From an uncultured Acidimicrobiales bacterium (GTDB taxonomy: Bacteria; Actinomycetota; Acidimicrobiia; Acidimicrobiales; Aldehydirespiratoraceae), in assembly GCA_958296055.1 (NCBI GenBank), contig CATQHS010000001.1, positions 1,314,277 to 1,378,276 on the forward strand: a DNA stretch of 64,000 nucleotides. Reading direction: 5' to 3'. The stretch's first letter is position 1. Each line of letters starts with the position of its first letter. Under the pieces are notes generated by a model. It saw nothing but the letters and a program-made list of their open reading frames with translations, searched no databases and was not told the DNA's origin. The translations under genes were made by a program, and so were the position numbers. Positions 28,711 through 51,142 of this stretch are shown in pieces.

Positions 28711-28806
28711 GGAGGTGTCCGAGCGCCTGGTGGGCTCCCCCGCCTTCAAAGCGGGCGGGACGGGCGATCCCCGTCCGGCGGGTTCGATTCCCGTCCACCT
28801 CCGCCA
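28711..28806 (+). tRNA. selC: tRNA-Sec, anticodon TCA
   Basis: A 96-base gene including an encoded CCA end. GGAGGTG at 28711 pairs with CACCTCC (28796-28802), followed by the discriminator G and CCA. The anticodon loop CTTCAAA (28744-28750) holds TCA at 28746-28748, flanked by CCGCC and GCGGG. The long acceptor-T arm and the large variable arm (GACGGGCGATCCCCGTC) are typical of bacterial tRNA-Sec, which lets UGA be read as selenocysteine. The T loop is GGTTCGATTCC. selA, selB and selD must lie elsewhere. The gene overlaps the 3' end of the NYN gene on the other strand. Confidence 0.96.
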
Positions 28807-44374: not shown

Positions 44375-44908
44375 TCAGTCCTTGCGGGCCACCACTATGG
44401 CCCCGATCAAGGCGGCCAGCAGCAGCACCGACACCGCCTCGAAGGCGATTATGTACTGGCTGAAGATGGCGTCGGACACCAGGGAGGTCGGCTGGGGCTC
44501 GTTGATCACCAGCCGGGTGTCGGAGAAGCTCTCGATCAGGGCGCCGCCGGTCACCAGCCCCAGCAGCACCGCCACCACCGCGGCCATGACCCGCTTCTCG
44601 CCCGAGGCGGTCTCATCGTCGCCCATGGAGGCCCGGGTGAGCATGATCCCGAACAGGAACAGCACCACGATGGCGCCGACGTACACCAGCACCTGGGTGA
44701 CGGCCACGAACTCCGACCCCAGCAGGATGAACTGGGCCGCGGCTCCGGCCAGCACCAGCACCAGCCACAGGGCGGCGTGGACGACGTTGCGGGTGGTGAC
44801 GCAGCGGAAGGCCGAGAACACCATCACCGCGGCGATGGCGACAAAGAACACGTTTTGGGCCACTAGGAGATCGCCGTCGGCCGCGGCCGCGGCCAGCGCG
44901 CCGGTCAC
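44375..44908 (-). CDS. nuoJ: NADH-quinone oxidoreductase subunit J (first cluster)
   Basis: A 177-residue membrane subunit. Seen: [40 protein letters not shown] and [20 protein letters not shown], the pi-bulge helix that links the quinone site to the antiporter arm. It begins at 44908 and overlaps the nuoI stop by 4 bp. The gene's last 15 bases lie inside the second copy of a 19-bp direct repeat. Confidence 0.95.
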
Positions 44909-45447
44909 GGGGCCGGGACCTTCCGCTTCTTGGCCTCCGACCCGGCCTCGTAGTCCTCAAAGTCGGGCACCGTCTCCATCCACTCCGACAGGCGGGACAT
45001 GTCATGGAGCAGGTCGGCGATGCGGGGCTCGGAGAACTCGTACTCGGGGCTCCAGAACAGGGCGTCGAAGGGGCACACCTCCACGCAGATGCCGCAGAAC
45101 ATGCACAGGGCGTAGTCGATGTCGAAGCGGTCGAGCTTGTTGACCAGGCGGGGCTTGCCCCCGGCCCGCCGGGGCGGCGCCTTCTCCTTGTGGCCCTCGA
45201 TGTAGATGCACCAGTCGGGGCACTCCCGGGCGCACAGCATGCAGGCGGTGCAGTTCCCCTCGTGCAGGGCGATCACGCCCCGGGCCCGGGTGGGGGGCGC
45301 CTCCTTCTCCCGGGGGTACTGCACGGTGGCCGCCCCTTTGGTCGGGGCCGGGACCAGGGTCTTGATCCCCCGGCGGGGGAACACGGTGCGCAGGATGGTG
45401 CCGCCGGTGACGGCCAGCCCCTTGAACAGCCCGGGCACTAGGGCCAT
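44905..45447 (-). CDS. nuoI: NADH-quinone oxidoreductase subunit I (first cluster)
   Basis: A 180-residue 8Fe ferredoxin-like subunit carrying clusters N6a and N6b, which hand electrons to NuoB. The two motifs are [12 protein letters not shown] (about 70-81) and [12 protein letters not shown] (about 115-126). Before them [16 protein letters not shown] anchors the protein on the membrane arm. It restarts the nuo operon after the three-copy insert; the 193 bp between the insert and this gene have no coding frame I trust and could hold a promoter. Confidence 0.95.
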
Positions 45448-45640
45448 AACGCCGCCGCGGCCAGCGCGTCGGTCACGGCCGAACGCCGCCGATGAGACAG
45501 GTGCTCACAAGCTGTGACACGGGCCGCAAGCCTACCGAGGCTCCCGCGCCGTCCGCGTCACCGGGCGCCTCAACCGAGCCGTTCCCCGTGGATCGGCACG
45601 AGCATCCGCGGCCAAGTCGCCACGCCGGCGCGTCTGACGC

Positions 45641-46168
45641 CTACCTGCCGGGTTTGCGTTGCCGCAGTTCGCGTTGCACGCGAGGGCCGAACTCAACCCG
45701 AAAAGGCGCAGCGTGAACCGACACCGGATCGACGTCGATGCCCAGGAAGCGCAACCGCTCGACCACCCACTCCATCCAGAGTTCGTCGTCGCCCGGGCCG
45801 AGCATCAGAATTGCCGCTTTGGTGAGTTCGCGTCCATTAGCGGATTTCCATGAATTCACTGGCCCGGAAGACCACCCGCGGTCGTCTTTCAGAATCAAGC
45901 GCCGGCCGTCGCTCAGGTCCGCGAACTCCTCCGCGTAGAAGCTAAGCCTCCCCGACTCAAGCATCTTCTGCCGCTGGGCCAGCATCATTTCATGCGGGTG
46001 TGCAGTAGGGAGCCAGCCAAAACCCTCACGTTTCTCCGGCCTGGCGGCGTCAAGTTCTTCTGGAGTCGGAGGGCGGACGTAACCCGTCATATCGAGCTTC
46101 GGACGCCGCGGCGGAGCCGTCAAATCCTCCGTCTCAACTATTGCTCCCAGCGCAATGACGTCCAACAC
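45641..46168 (-). CDS. Unknown repeated protein in the nuo operon, copy C
   Basis: A 175-residue protein starting GTG 46168. Main motifs: LDVIALGAIVETEDLTAPPR, a Pro-rich segment, FYAEEFADLSDGRRLILKDD with RGW, ELWMEWVVERLRFLGIDVDP and the basic end FGPRVQRELRQRKPGR. No signal peptide or membrane segment. I recognise no family. Two more copies lie directly upstream on the same strand between nuoI and nuoH. It is the only one of the three that is intact at both ends. The soluble, acidic-to-basic layout and multi-copy state recall immunity-type proteins, but that is a guess. Confidence 0.75.
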   Translation of the reverse strand: MLDVIALGAIVETEDLTAPPRRPKLDMTGYVRPPTPEELDAARPEKREGFGWLPTAHPHEMMLAQRQKMLESGRLSFYAEEFADLSDGRRLILKDDRGWSSGPVNSWKSANGRELTKAAILMLGPGDDELWMEWVVERLRFLGIDVDPVSVHAAPFRVEFGPRVQRELRQRKPGR

Positions 46169-46174
46169 TGACGC

Positions 46175-46691
46175 TTACCTACCAGATTTGCGCTGCCGCA
46201 GTTCGTATTGGACGCGGGGCCCGAACTCCACCTGAAAAGGTGCAGCATGAACCGACGCCGGATCGACATCAACGCCCAAGAAGCGCAACCGCTCAACCAT
46301 CCACTCCATCCAGTTCGTCGTCGCCCGGGTCCAGCATCAGAATTACTTCTATGGTGAGTTCATGTCCATTGGCCACTTTCCAGCTACTATCCGGGGAATT
46401 CACTGGCCAATGAGCCCAACCGCGGTCGTCCTTCAGGATCACCCGACGGCCGTCACTCAAGTCCACGAACTCCTCCGCGTAGAACTGAGGCCTCCCCGAC
46501 TCAAGCATCCTCTGACGCTCGACTAGCAGCCCTTCAGGGTGAGGGCCCCTACGAGGAAGCGGCCTAGCGATGCCGAGTTCTTCAGGTGCAGGACGATGGA
46601 CGCAATAACCCCCATAGAGAATGGGCCACCTCGGAGGGCCCGTCAAGTCCTCCGTCTCAACAATTGCCCCCAGCGCAGTGACATCCAACAC
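46175..46691 (-). pseudogene. Unknown repeated protein in the nuo operon, copy B (frameshifted)
   Basis: Copy B starts at GTG 46691 (VLDVTALGAIVETEDLTGPP) and should end at the TAA at 46175. It is 517 bp against 528 bp for copies A and C, not a multiple of three. A 2-base deletion near 46313 is seen by direct comparison: copy C has CCATCCAGAGTTCGTCGTCG, copy B has CCATCCAGTTCGTCGTCG. The frame therefore ends early as DDELDGVDG, although the shifted frame still encodes MEWMVERLRFLGVDVDP and a normal end. Because copy A has lost its stop, copy B is also translated as its C-terminal extension. Confidence 0.78.
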
Positions 46692-47219
46692 CGACGCCTG
46701 CCCGCCGGGTTTGCGTTGCCGCAACTCGCGCTGCACTCGGGGGCCGAACTCAACCCGAAAAGGTGCAGCATGAACCGACACCGGATCGACATCGACGCCA
46801 AAGAAACCCAACCGCTCAACCACCCACTCTGTCCAGAACTCACTGTAATCTGGTTGAAGAATGGAAGCCGCATCGAAGGTCAGAGAGCATCCATTGGCCA
46901 CTTTCCACAAACTGCCCGAAGACCAACCGCGGTCGTCCTTGAGAATCACGCGCCGACCGTCGCTCAAGTCCGCGAACTCCTCCGCGTAGAACTGAGGCCT
47001 CCCCGACTCAAGCATCCTTTTACGCTGGGCCAGCTTCATTTCAGGCGAAGCAGGCATGTAGCCCCCGCCAGAACTCCTGAGTTCTTCTAATCTAACATCA
47101 AATTCCTCAGGAGTCAGAGGAGGGTCGACGTAACCTCTCATATCGAGCTTCGGATGCCGCGGAGGGGCCGTCAAATCTTCCGTCTCAACTATTGCCCCCA
47201 ACGCAATAACGTCTAACAC
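46293..47219 (-). CDS. Unknown repeated protein, copy A fused to truncated copy B
   Basis: The 308-residue frame is copy A (176 codons, 46692-47219) read into copy B. In copies B and C the end reads RKSGR-stop or RKPGR-stop; in copy A it reads RKPGGQAS and runs on, because the stop codon TAG has become CAG. Copy A has LDVIALGAIVETEDLTAPPR, FYAEEFADLSDGRRVILKDD with RGW, EFWTEWVVERLGFFGVDVDP and the same basic C terminus. It lies 96 bp downstream of nuoH on the same strand, so it is probably in the nuo transcript. Function unknown. Confidence 0.72.
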   Translation of the reverse strand: MLDVIALGAIVETEDLTAPPRHPKLDMRGYVDPPLTPEEFDVRLEELRSSGGGYMPASPEMKLAQRKRMLESGRPQFYAEEFADLSDGRRVILKDDRGWSSGSLWKVANGCSLTFDAASILQPDYSEFWTEWVVERLGFFGVDVDPVSVHAAPFRVEFGPRVQRELRQRKPGGQASVLDVTALGAIVETEDLTGPPRWPILYGGYCVHRPAPEELGIARPLPRRGPHPEGLLVERQRMLESGRPQFYAEEFVDLSDGRRVILKDDRGWAHWPVNSPDSSWKVANGHELTIEVILMLDPGDDELDGVDG

Positions 47220-47315: not shown

Positions 47316-48347
47316 TCAGACCAGGACTTTGAGGACGCCGGTGACCACGATGTTGGCCAGGGCGATGGGGATGAGGAACTTCCAGGCCAGGCGCTGAAGC
47401 TGGTCCTCGCGGAAGCGGGGGAAGGTGAACCGGAACCAGAAGATGAGAAACGACAGGCCGACGATCTTGACCATCAGCACCACCGGCCCCAGCACGTTGA
47501 ACAGGTTGTCGGCCGGGTCGAGGCCGGGCACGTACCAGCCGCCCAAGAACAGCACCGCGGCGATGGCCGAGAACACGCCGGCGGTGGCGAACTCGCCGAT
47601 GAAGAACAGCAGGAACCGCAGGCCCGAGTACTCGGTCATGTAGCCGGTGACCAGCTCCGACTCGGCCACCGGCATGTCGAAGGGGGTCTGGGTGAGCTCG
47701 GCCTGCATGGCGATCATGAACACCGCGAACCCCACGAACTGGGTGATGACGAAGGGGTTGCCGATGCCGCCCCAGCCGAAGATCTCGCCGTCGGCCTGGG
47801 CCAGCACAATGCCTTGCATGTTCATGGTCTCGGCCTGGATCACCACCCCGACCACAGCCAGGATGAGGGGCAGCTCGTAGGCGATGAGCTGGCCGGTGGC
47901 CCGCAGGCCGCCCATCAGCGAGTACTTGGAGGCCGAGCCCCAGCCCGCCATCAAGATGCCGATCACCGACACCGAGCTGACGGCCAGGGCCAGGTAGATG
48001 CCCAGGTCGTTGTCTATGAAGAAGGCGTCGGGTCCGCCGGGCAGCACCACCACCAGCAAGAAGGTGGACACCAGCACCACGAAGGGGGCGGCCTTGAACA
48101 CGAACCGGTCGGCCCGCCGGGGGACGATGTCCTCCTTCTGGATGAACTTGCCCACCTCGGCCAAAAGCTGCAGCGAGCCGTAGGGGCCGGCCTCCATGGG
48201 GCCGAGGCGGCTCTGCATGAAGCTCACCAGCTTGAACAGGTGCAAGTACACCAGGGTCCCGGCCGGGATGAGCACGGCCACCAGCCCCACCACCACCCGG
48301 ATGGAGGTCTGCTGCCACCAGGCCAGCTCGGCCAAGATAAGGGTCAT
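47316..48347 (-). CDS. nuoH: NADH-quinone oxidoreductase subunit H
   Basis: A 343-residue membrane subunit that builds the quinone chamber with NuoB and NuoD. Seen: KLVSFMQSRLGPMEAGPYGS, ADRFVFKAAPFVVLVSTFLL, ELPLILAVVGVVIQAETM, QTPFDMPVAESELVTGYMTE (the conserved charged E-channel loop), EYSGLRFLLFFIGEFA and RFTFPRFREDQLQRLAWKFL. It starts 40 bp after nuoD. Normally nuoE, nuoF and nuoG come between nuoD and nuoH; here none of them is present. Confidence 0.96.
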   Translation of the reverse strand: MTLILAELAWWQQTSIRVVVGLVAVLIPAGTLVYLHLFKLVSFMQSRLGPMEAGPYGSLQLLAEVGKFIQKEDIVPRRADRFVFKAAPFVVLVSTFLLVVVLPGGPDAFFIDNDLGIYLALAVSSVSVIGILMAGWGSASKYSLMGGLRATGQLIAYELPLILAVVGVVIQAETMNMQGIVLAQADGEIFGWGGIGNPFVITQFVGFAVFMIAMQAELTQTPFDMPVAESELVTGYMTEYSGLRFLLFFIGEFATAGVFSAIAAVLFLGGWYVPGLDPADNLFNVLGPVVLMVKIVGLSFLIFWFRFTFPRFREDQLQRLAWKFLIPIALANIVVTGVLKVLV

Positions 48348-50308: not shown

Positions 50309-50786
50309 CCCTCCAGCGCTCGGCCATGTCCTCGTTGCGGATGCGCTCCTGGAGCATGACGATGCCCTCCAGCAGGGCCTCGGGCCTCGGCGGGCAGCCG
50401 GGCACGTACACGTCGACGGGCACGATCTGGTCGACGCCCTTGGTGACCGAGTAGCTGTCCCAGTAGGGGCCGCCGCAGTTGGCGCACGACCCCATGGAGA
50501 TCACGTACTTGGGCTCGGGCATCTGCTCGTAGAGGCGGCGCACCGCCGGGGCCATCTTGTCGGTGACGGTGCCCGAGATCACCACCAAGTCGGCCTGGCG
50601 GGGGCTGGCCGGCAGTGGGATCACCCCCAGGCGCATCACGTCGTAGCGGGGCGAGCCGAAGGCGGCCCCCATCTCGATGGCGCAGCAGGCCAGGCCCCAC
50701 TGGTACACCCACAGGGAGTACTTGCGGCTCATGTTCAACAGGGCGGTCAGCGGCTTGGGGACCTTGCCCGACTCCACTAGACCCAT
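50286..50786 (-). CDS. nuoB: NADH-quinone oxidoreductase subunit B
   Basis: A 166-residue subunit carrying the terminal cluster N2, which reduces quinone. The ligands are visible: the double Cys in [20 protein letters not shown], then [18 protein letters not shown] and [21 protein letters not shown] chose ATG 50786 ([14 protein letters not shown]); the longer frame to 50978 overlaps nuoA and is unlike the family. It overlaps the nuoA stop by 10 bp. Confidence 0.95.
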
Positions 50787-51142
50787 CGCAGCATCCCCTT
50801 GCGCCAGGCGTAGAGCAGGCCCAGCAGCAGGATGAAAATGAAGATGGCCATCTCCACCAGGCCGAACATCCCGTAGGCCTCCAGCCGGGTGGCCCACGGA
50901 AAGATGAACACCGCCTCCACGTCGAACATCACGAACAGCAGGGCGAACACGTAGTAGCGGATGTTGGCCTGCGACCACCCGTCGCCGATCGGGTCCACGC
51001 CCGACTCGTAGTTCTCGGTCTTGGCCGGGGTGGGCCTCGACGGCCGCAGCAGCCGCCCCAAGCCCAGGAAAGCGCCGACCAGCACCACGCCCAGCGCCCC
51101 GAAGATCCCGACGGTCAGGTAGGTGCGCAGGAACTCCGACAT
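50777..51142 (-). CDS. nuoA: NADH-quinone oxidoreductase subunit A
   Basis: A 121-residue three-helix subunit and the first gene of the operon. Seen: [40 protein letters not shown] then [20 protein letters not shown] with the conserved Asp and Glu, and [20 protein letters not shown]. Length is normal. The promoter must lie in 51143-51263, where a large inverted repeat also sits. Confidence 0.95.

What the first reader, a model, noticed from the sequence alone, without database searches (positions are those of the whole stretch)
45641..47219. Triplicated unknown gene inserted in the complex I operon
Three tandem copies of one gene, about 528 bp each, lie between nuoH and nuoI on the same strand. 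Their states differ in a readable way: copy C is intact, copy B has a 2-base deletion, and copy A has lost its stop codon and is fused to copy B. Base composition is lower than in the nuo genes. I do not recognise the protein (key motif FYAEEFADLSDGRR and LKDDRGW). Repeated soluble genes that decay and fuse are typical of immunity-type arrays, but here they sit in a respiratory operon with no toxin near. This is the best candidate for something undescribed.
Basis: partly seen in the sequence, partly recalled or inferred. Interest (0 to 1): 0.82.

Follow-up and report, generated by a model that had tools for sequence, protein, structure and literature searches.

The report
Orphan immunity-like array splitting complex I operon
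Three decaying copies of an undescribed gene sit between two genes of the respiratory complex I operon; in related bacteria the same gene family follows a gene for a secreted protein, so the copies look like leftover self-protection genes, parked at a site where related genomes carry defence genes and where a copy of the operon's own promoter lies in front of the downstream half.

Summary
In detail: three tandem copies lie between nuoH and nuoI, C intact, B with a 2-base deletion, A without its stop and fused to B. They are real, old paralogues (dS 0.6-0.9, dN/dS 0.27-0.37), so not an assembly artefact. The family has no Pfam, NCBIfam or PADLOC match and is sparse in Acidimicrobiia. It is not a complex I subunit: nuoH and nuoI adjoin in 24 of 30 relatives. 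(1) In relatives the family follows, on the same strand, a gene for a secreted, cysteine-containing, probably beta-sandwich protein; all 14 places found (8 near-complete genes, 6 damaged) lie beside a family member, whereas family members often lack the partner, as in this genome. (2) The nuoH-nuoI junction is a hotspot: relatives carry the secreted pair, GmrSD-type, AAA_21 and PIN genes there. (3) All six occupied junctions have a near-copy of the leaderless nuoA promoter just upstream of nuoI, so the operon is probably split in two. Best reading: an array of orphan immunity-like genes from a two-gene secreted effector/immunity-like module. Toxicity and protection are inferred, not shown. New variant of a known kind.

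The parts
46693..47219 (-). copy A of the family; stop codon replaced by CAG, reads into copy B
   Evidence: family HMM E 1.4e-64
46170..46691 (-). copy B; 2-nt deletion near 46312 shifts the frame; the A+B ORF 46293-47219 is 308 aa
45641..46168 (-). copy C; intact 175-aa ORF, GTG start about 6 nt after the stop of B, SD-like GGTAGG upstream
   Evidence: HMM E 4.1e-69
47316..48347 (-). nuoH (complex I), upstream flank of the insert
   Evidence: Pfam NADHdh E 1.1e-95
44905..45447 (-). nuoI (complex I), downstream flank of the insert
   Evidence: Fer4 matches; orthologues in 46 of 51 same-family genomes
45517..45538 (-). TCGGTAGGCTTGCGGCCCGTGT, putative promoter (-10 TAGGCT) in front of nuoI, near-copy of the nuoA promoter of relatives
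   Evidence: present before nuoI in all six genomes with an occupied junction; 14 of the other 17 hits in 51 genomes are at nuoA
45473..45520 (-). 15-codon ORF that starts at the GTG of the promoter element ([15 protein letters not shown]), possible leaderless leader peptide before nuoI
   Evidence: similar 15-codon ORFs in G046 and G052
50777..51142 (-). nuoA, first gene of the upstream half; GGGTAGGCT about 9 nt before its ATG (leaderless-type promoter)

Best explanation
The array is a set of tandemly duplicated, now orphan, copies of the cytosolic half of a two-gene module. In relatives the upstream gene encodes a secreted protein (Sec-type N-terminus, about six cysteines, probable beta-sandwich) and the downstream gene encodes this family. 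The most likely working is effector/immunity: the secreted protein acts on neighbouring cells and the cytosolic protein protects its owner. Once the effector is lost, the immunity gene can be kept, duplicated and fused against effectors of neighbours, and decays when no longer needed. The module lies in a hotspot between nuoH and nuoI that relatives use for defence-type genes. An element like the nuoA promoter just upstream of nuoI would drive nuoI-nuoN separately, so insertion upstream of it need not stop complex I. Shown: copies and their states, recurrent pairing with the secreted gene, hotspot, filled and empty sites, promoter-like element. Inferred: toxicity, protection, transcription from the element.
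For: Copies and lesions. Tandem duplication in this lineage: A, B and C form one clade (97/92), near the copies at the same junction in L030; purifying selection, dN/dS 0.27-0.37. Pairing: in 51 same-family genomes the partner profile gives 12 real hits (8 near-complete, 4 C-terminal fragments), each directly upstream of a family member on the same strand; one further fragment in G004:C32 and one damaged copy in another family, G376. Own genome: no partner. Secretion: hydrophobic N-termini in all eight partners (15-residue means 2.1-2.8; elsewhere mostly under 1). Fused double family genes in L030, L031 and G023. Hotspot: 6 of 30 junctions occupied by different cargo, with GmrSD_N, AAA_21, PIN, MazE-type antitoxin and Uma2 genes. 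Empty against filled site: in eight g5 relatives nuoH TGA overlaps nuoI ATG; G046 keeps AAGGTGGTGGTGTGATGGGCCTC at its right junction as in empty G045. Promoter: 23 hits in 51 genomes are 14 at nuoA, 6 at nuoI (exactly the occupied junctions) and 3 elsewhere; CGN-TANNNT is the usual mycobacterial -10 form (PMC3898074).
Against: No catalytic or pore-forming motif is known in the secreted protein; its model is weak (mean pLDDT 49) and an Ig-like fold fits adhesins equally well. Distance matrices of partner and family protein correlate only weakly (r = 0.29, p = 0.06, 9 pairs). No locus has an intact partner beside a broken family gene, but broken family genes are few, so this polarity is not significant. 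Two family members carry a weakly ribbon-helix-helix-like tail, which would suit a regulator. The family protein was not matched to any known immunity fold. In the window the array itself is partly broken.
Confidence: 0.52

Rival explanations
1. The family protein is a regulator or cytosolic chaperone of the secreted protein (for example a host-binding adhesin of sponge or marine symbionts), and the window holds leftover copies after loss of the secreted gene.
For: Same-strand adjacency fits any functional pair; two members have a weakly RHH-like C-terminal tail; the partner's predicted fold is Ig-like, with only generic fold matches.
Against: Solo members without the partner are frequent and the copies have been under purifying selection; tandem and fused duplication is unusual for a dedicated chaperone; most members lack the tail; solo core-domain members exist far from any such partner, for example G763.
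Confidence: 0.22
2. Non-adaptive relic: an accessory gene that landed in a tolerated site, duplicated and is decaying, with no present function.
For: A lacks its stop, B is frameshifted; further broken remnants in the same genome near C1:1777.6-1778.2 kb and a stop-interrupted copy in G001:C37.
Against: Copy C is intact with SD-like spacing; dN/dS among copies 0.27-0.37, although this averages over the past; the family is kept in several lineages.
Confidence: 0.2
3. Accessory subunit or assembly factor of complex I.
For: Only its place between nuoH and nuoI on the same strand.
Against: Absent from the junction in 24 of 30 relatives, where nuoH and nuoI adjoin or overlap; members elsewhere lie beside dpp transporter, ribosomal or unrelated genes.
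Confidence: 0.02
4. Assembly artefact of repeats.
For: Tandem repeats are error-prone in assemblies.
Against: Copies differ at 23-38% of residues and dS is 0.59-0.87; the array lies within a 3.27-Mb contig; one relative, L030, has homologous double copies at the same junction.
Confidence: 0.01

Closest known systems
Orphan immunity gene arrays of Vibrio cholerae type VI clusters (PMC5361080)
   Same: Strings of immunity genes kept after loss of the effector; remnants of effector 3' ends left beside the immunity gene, as in G023, G053, G041 and G001:C51.
   Different: No type VI system or delivery genes were seen; the partner has a Sec-type signal; the copies here are tandem duplicates of each other, whereas the V. 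cholerae arrays come from successive displacement; neither effector nor immunity function is shown here.
Polymorphic-toxin immunity proteins (Imm families in Pfam)
   Same: Small cytosolic protein encoded directly after a secreted protein gene, with fused and solo forms.
   Different: No Pfam match for the window copies beyond one sub-threshold hit; no known toxin domain in the partner.
Defence islands and core-gene hotspots (for example PMC10250203, PMC10121019)
   Same: One junction holds different defence-type cargo in related genomes.
   Different: The site is inside a housekeeping operon whose genes overlap in the empty state, and occupied sites have a nuoA-like promoter before the downstream half.
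Leaderless TANNNT promoters of Actinobacteria (PMC3898074)
   Same: CGN-TANNNT about 8 nt before a GTG or ATG start, at nuoA and before nuoI.
   Different: At nuoI the start codon opens a short ORF and not the subunit gene.

Membership tests
Effector/immunity pair (immunity partner) | Immunity gene directly downstream of its effector gene on the same strand | tested here: met
   In relatives: all 14 partner places (8 near-complete, 6 damaged) lie directly upstream of a family member. Not so in the window, where the partner is absent.
Effector/immunity pair (immunity partner) | Partner is exported | tested here: met
   Only a hydrophobicity test of N-termini, all eight near-complete partners; no dedicated signal-peptide program was available.
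Effector/immunity pair (immunity partner) | Partner has a toxic activity or a known toxin domain | tested here: inconclusive
   No Pfam or NCBIfam match, no PDB sequence match; low-confidence Ig-like model.
Effector/immunity pair (immunity partner) | Family protein binds and neutralises the partner | not testable with these tools
   Needs co-expression or binding assays; co-variation of distances is only weak.
Known Imm families in Pfam | Profile match | tested here: not met
   No match for C; only a sub-threshold DUF3157 hit for A+B; none for distant members.
Type II toxin-antitoxin | Both products cytosolic | tested here: not met
   Partner has a Sec-type N-terminus.
Complex I subunit | Conserved at the locus in relatives | tested here: not met
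   nuoH and nuoI adjoin in 24 of 30.
Insertion hotspot with defence-type cargo | Different accessory genes at one junction in relatives, empty in others | tested here: met
   Six occupied and 24 empty junctions.
Insertion hotspot with defence-type cargo | Integrase or defined attachment site | tested here: inconclusive
   No integrase noticed among the ORFs listed in the inserts; G046 shows AAGGT on both sides; G052 holds a duplicated 76-codon nuoH 3' end.

The most novel reading that the evidence does not exclude
A new class of secreted effector with a new immunity fold in Acidimicrobiia, carried by small inserts that settle between nuoH and nuoI and bring a copy of the nuoA promoter, so that the respiratory operon is divided into two transcription units without loss of its downstream half.
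Probability: 0.3. Interest if true: 0.75.

Novelty: new variant of a known kind. Interest (0 to 1): 0.55.

Why it matters
It gives a testable two-gene candidate for antagonism in an order of mostly uncultured actinobacteria, with no match in the curated family libraries used here. It also gives a clear case, with filled and empty sites, of accessory DNA entering a housekeeping operon of overlapping genes, and of a duplicated promoter that may make this harmless.

Tried and rejected
Known families: Pfam, NCBIfam and PADLOC give nothing for either protein. PDB by sequence: nothing convincing. Fold search with the family model (mean pLDDT 64): no Foldseek match under E 0.37, best VIA Z 2.7; uninformative. 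Fold search with the partner (mean pLDDT 49): many beta-sandwich matches of unrelated function, Z up to 9.2; taken only as 'Ig-like sandwich, low confidence'. Viral contigs: none with the family; the partner alignment could not be searched. Plasmids: none with a distant member as query. Complex I subunit and assembly artefact: rejected. Partner hits in G006, G212 and G241 cover only the N-terminal part of the profile and were discarded as spurious. Recombination of the nuoH 3' end between occupied genomes: trees of the last 300 bp group G046, G053 and G052, but sliding identities show that the signal is confined to about the last 18 bp, so no wider exchange is claimed. Effector remnant in the 96-nt spacer before copy A: one frame reads DPTCRPKESSG-stop, a little like the LNCRP end of partners, but the profile does not find it; not claimed. 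Consensus promoter scan: no E. coli-type site, as expected for this class of promoter.

Full report
Observation. The window lies in an Acidimicrobiia-type genome (own assembly G000, 3.3 Mb, window at C1:1314277-1378276; the named relatives are Acidimicrobiales). On the minus strand nuoH is followed by three tandem copies of one gene and then nuoI. C is intact; B has lost two bases; A has CAG where C has its stop and runs into B. GC and GC3 are clearly lower than in nuoH and nuoI. Protein identity among the copies is 62-77%, dS 0.59-0.87, dN/dS 0.27-0.37; a tree puts them in one clade (97/92). They are therefore old tandem duplicates that were under purifying selection, not an artefact.

Distribution. 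The family has no curated match. A profile search finds it in 11 of 51 genomes of the same taxonomic family, counting the window's own, and, less sensitively, in a few other genomes of the class. A distant, solo core-domain member is in G763, an 8.6-Mb genome of another family. Members lie in many genomic settings: after a dpp transporter, beside rplQ and rpoA, and others. Several genomes hold more than one member; L030, L031 and G023 have fused double genes.

Partner. In the neighbourhoods a second gene recurs directly upstream: a protein of about 183-227 aa with a hydrophobic N-terminus, a low-complexity linker and a cysteine-containing C-terminal domain. A profile of eight such proteins finds, in 51 genomes, eight near-complete genes and four C-terminal fragments (one further hit, G006, covers only the N-terminal part and is spurious). 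Each of the 12 lies directly upstream of a family member on the same strand. A further fragment is in G004:C32, and G376 of another family has a damaged partner beside a family member. The window's genome has none. So the partner was not seen without the family, while the family is often seen without the partner. This polarity is what an effector/immunity pair would give, but the number of broken family genes is too small for a test. Fragmentary partners keep their 3' end next to the family gene, comparable to the displaced effectors described in Vibrio cholerae (PMC5361080).

The junction. nuoH and nuoI adjoin (gap at most 38 bp, often with TGATG overlap) in 24 of 30 relatives. Six are occupied: G000 (this array), G046 = L030 (partner, family genes, AAA_21 ATPase, a 157-aa protein that I read as PIN-like, without a Pfam match), G053 (GmrSD_N protein, AAA_21 ATPase, the 157-aa protein, a PIN and MazE-type antitoxin pair, Uma2), G052 (GmrSD_N protein, the 157-aa protein, a duplicated 76-codon nuoH end), G041 (a 311-aa protein, probably membrane-bound) and G004 (222 bp, no clear gene). 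The occupied genomes are scattered on the nuoI-region tree, so gains, losses or exchange have occurred more than once. G046 and G045 give a filled and empty pair: both share CTCAAGGT at the left, and G046 keeps AAGGTGGTGGTGTGATGGGCCTC at the right.

The promoter. All six occupied genomes carry TCGGTARGCTTG..., ending in CGTGT, with its end about 67-139 nt before nuoI. In 51 genomes the pattern with up to two mismatches has 23 hits: 14 at nuoA, where the GTG is the nuoA start codon, six before nuoI in exactly the occupied genomes, and three elsewhere. The form CGN-TANNNT close to the start codon is that of leaderless actinobacterial promoters (PMC3898074). In the window nuoA itself has GGGTAGGCT about 9 nt before its ATG. 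I infer that nuoI-nuoN have their own promoter in occupied genomes and that cargo upstream of it is tolerated. No transcript data were available.

Mechanism and confidence. The best reading is an orphan immunity-like array from a secreted effector/immunity-like module, lodged in an accessory-gene hotspot. Placement, pairing, decay and hotspot are shown; toxic action, neutralisation and promoter activity are inferred. A regulator or chaperone role and a functionless relic remain open.

Noticed in passing
window 28711-28806 (+): A selenocysteine tRNA gene (Rfam score 64.3, ARAGORN anticodon TCA), so this genome may make selenoproteins.
   Followed up: no
L111 7578-8273 (G000:C1 about 1777.6-1778.3 kb): Broken remnants of the same family lie beside a membrane protein gene whose C-terminal coding part seems repeated several times in the same stretch.
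   Followed up: partly
L092 5839-6066: A second copy of the last 76 codons of nuoH, ending in its own stop, lies inside the insert of G052.
   Followed up: partly
L094, L095, L153: The partner/family pair lies right after the dpp transporter ATPase genes in G066 and G023 and also in G376 of another taxonomic family: either an old shared position or a second insertion site.
   Followed up: no
L030 4943-5656 and L101 7191-7874: Two family members have a C-terminal tail with weak similarity to ribbon-helix-helix antitoxins, all below curated cut-offs.
   Followed up: partly
L089 3198-3671, L092 5362-5835: A conserved 157-aa protein that looks PIN-like by eye follows the AAA_21 ATPase at occupied junctions; no Pfam or PADLOC match.
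   Followed up: partly
window 45473-45520 (-): Short [18 protein letters not shown] from the GTG of the promoter element; G046 and G052 have similar 15-codon ORFs. Possible leader peptide, or just the leaderless start left from a nuoA-type promoter.
   Followed up: partly
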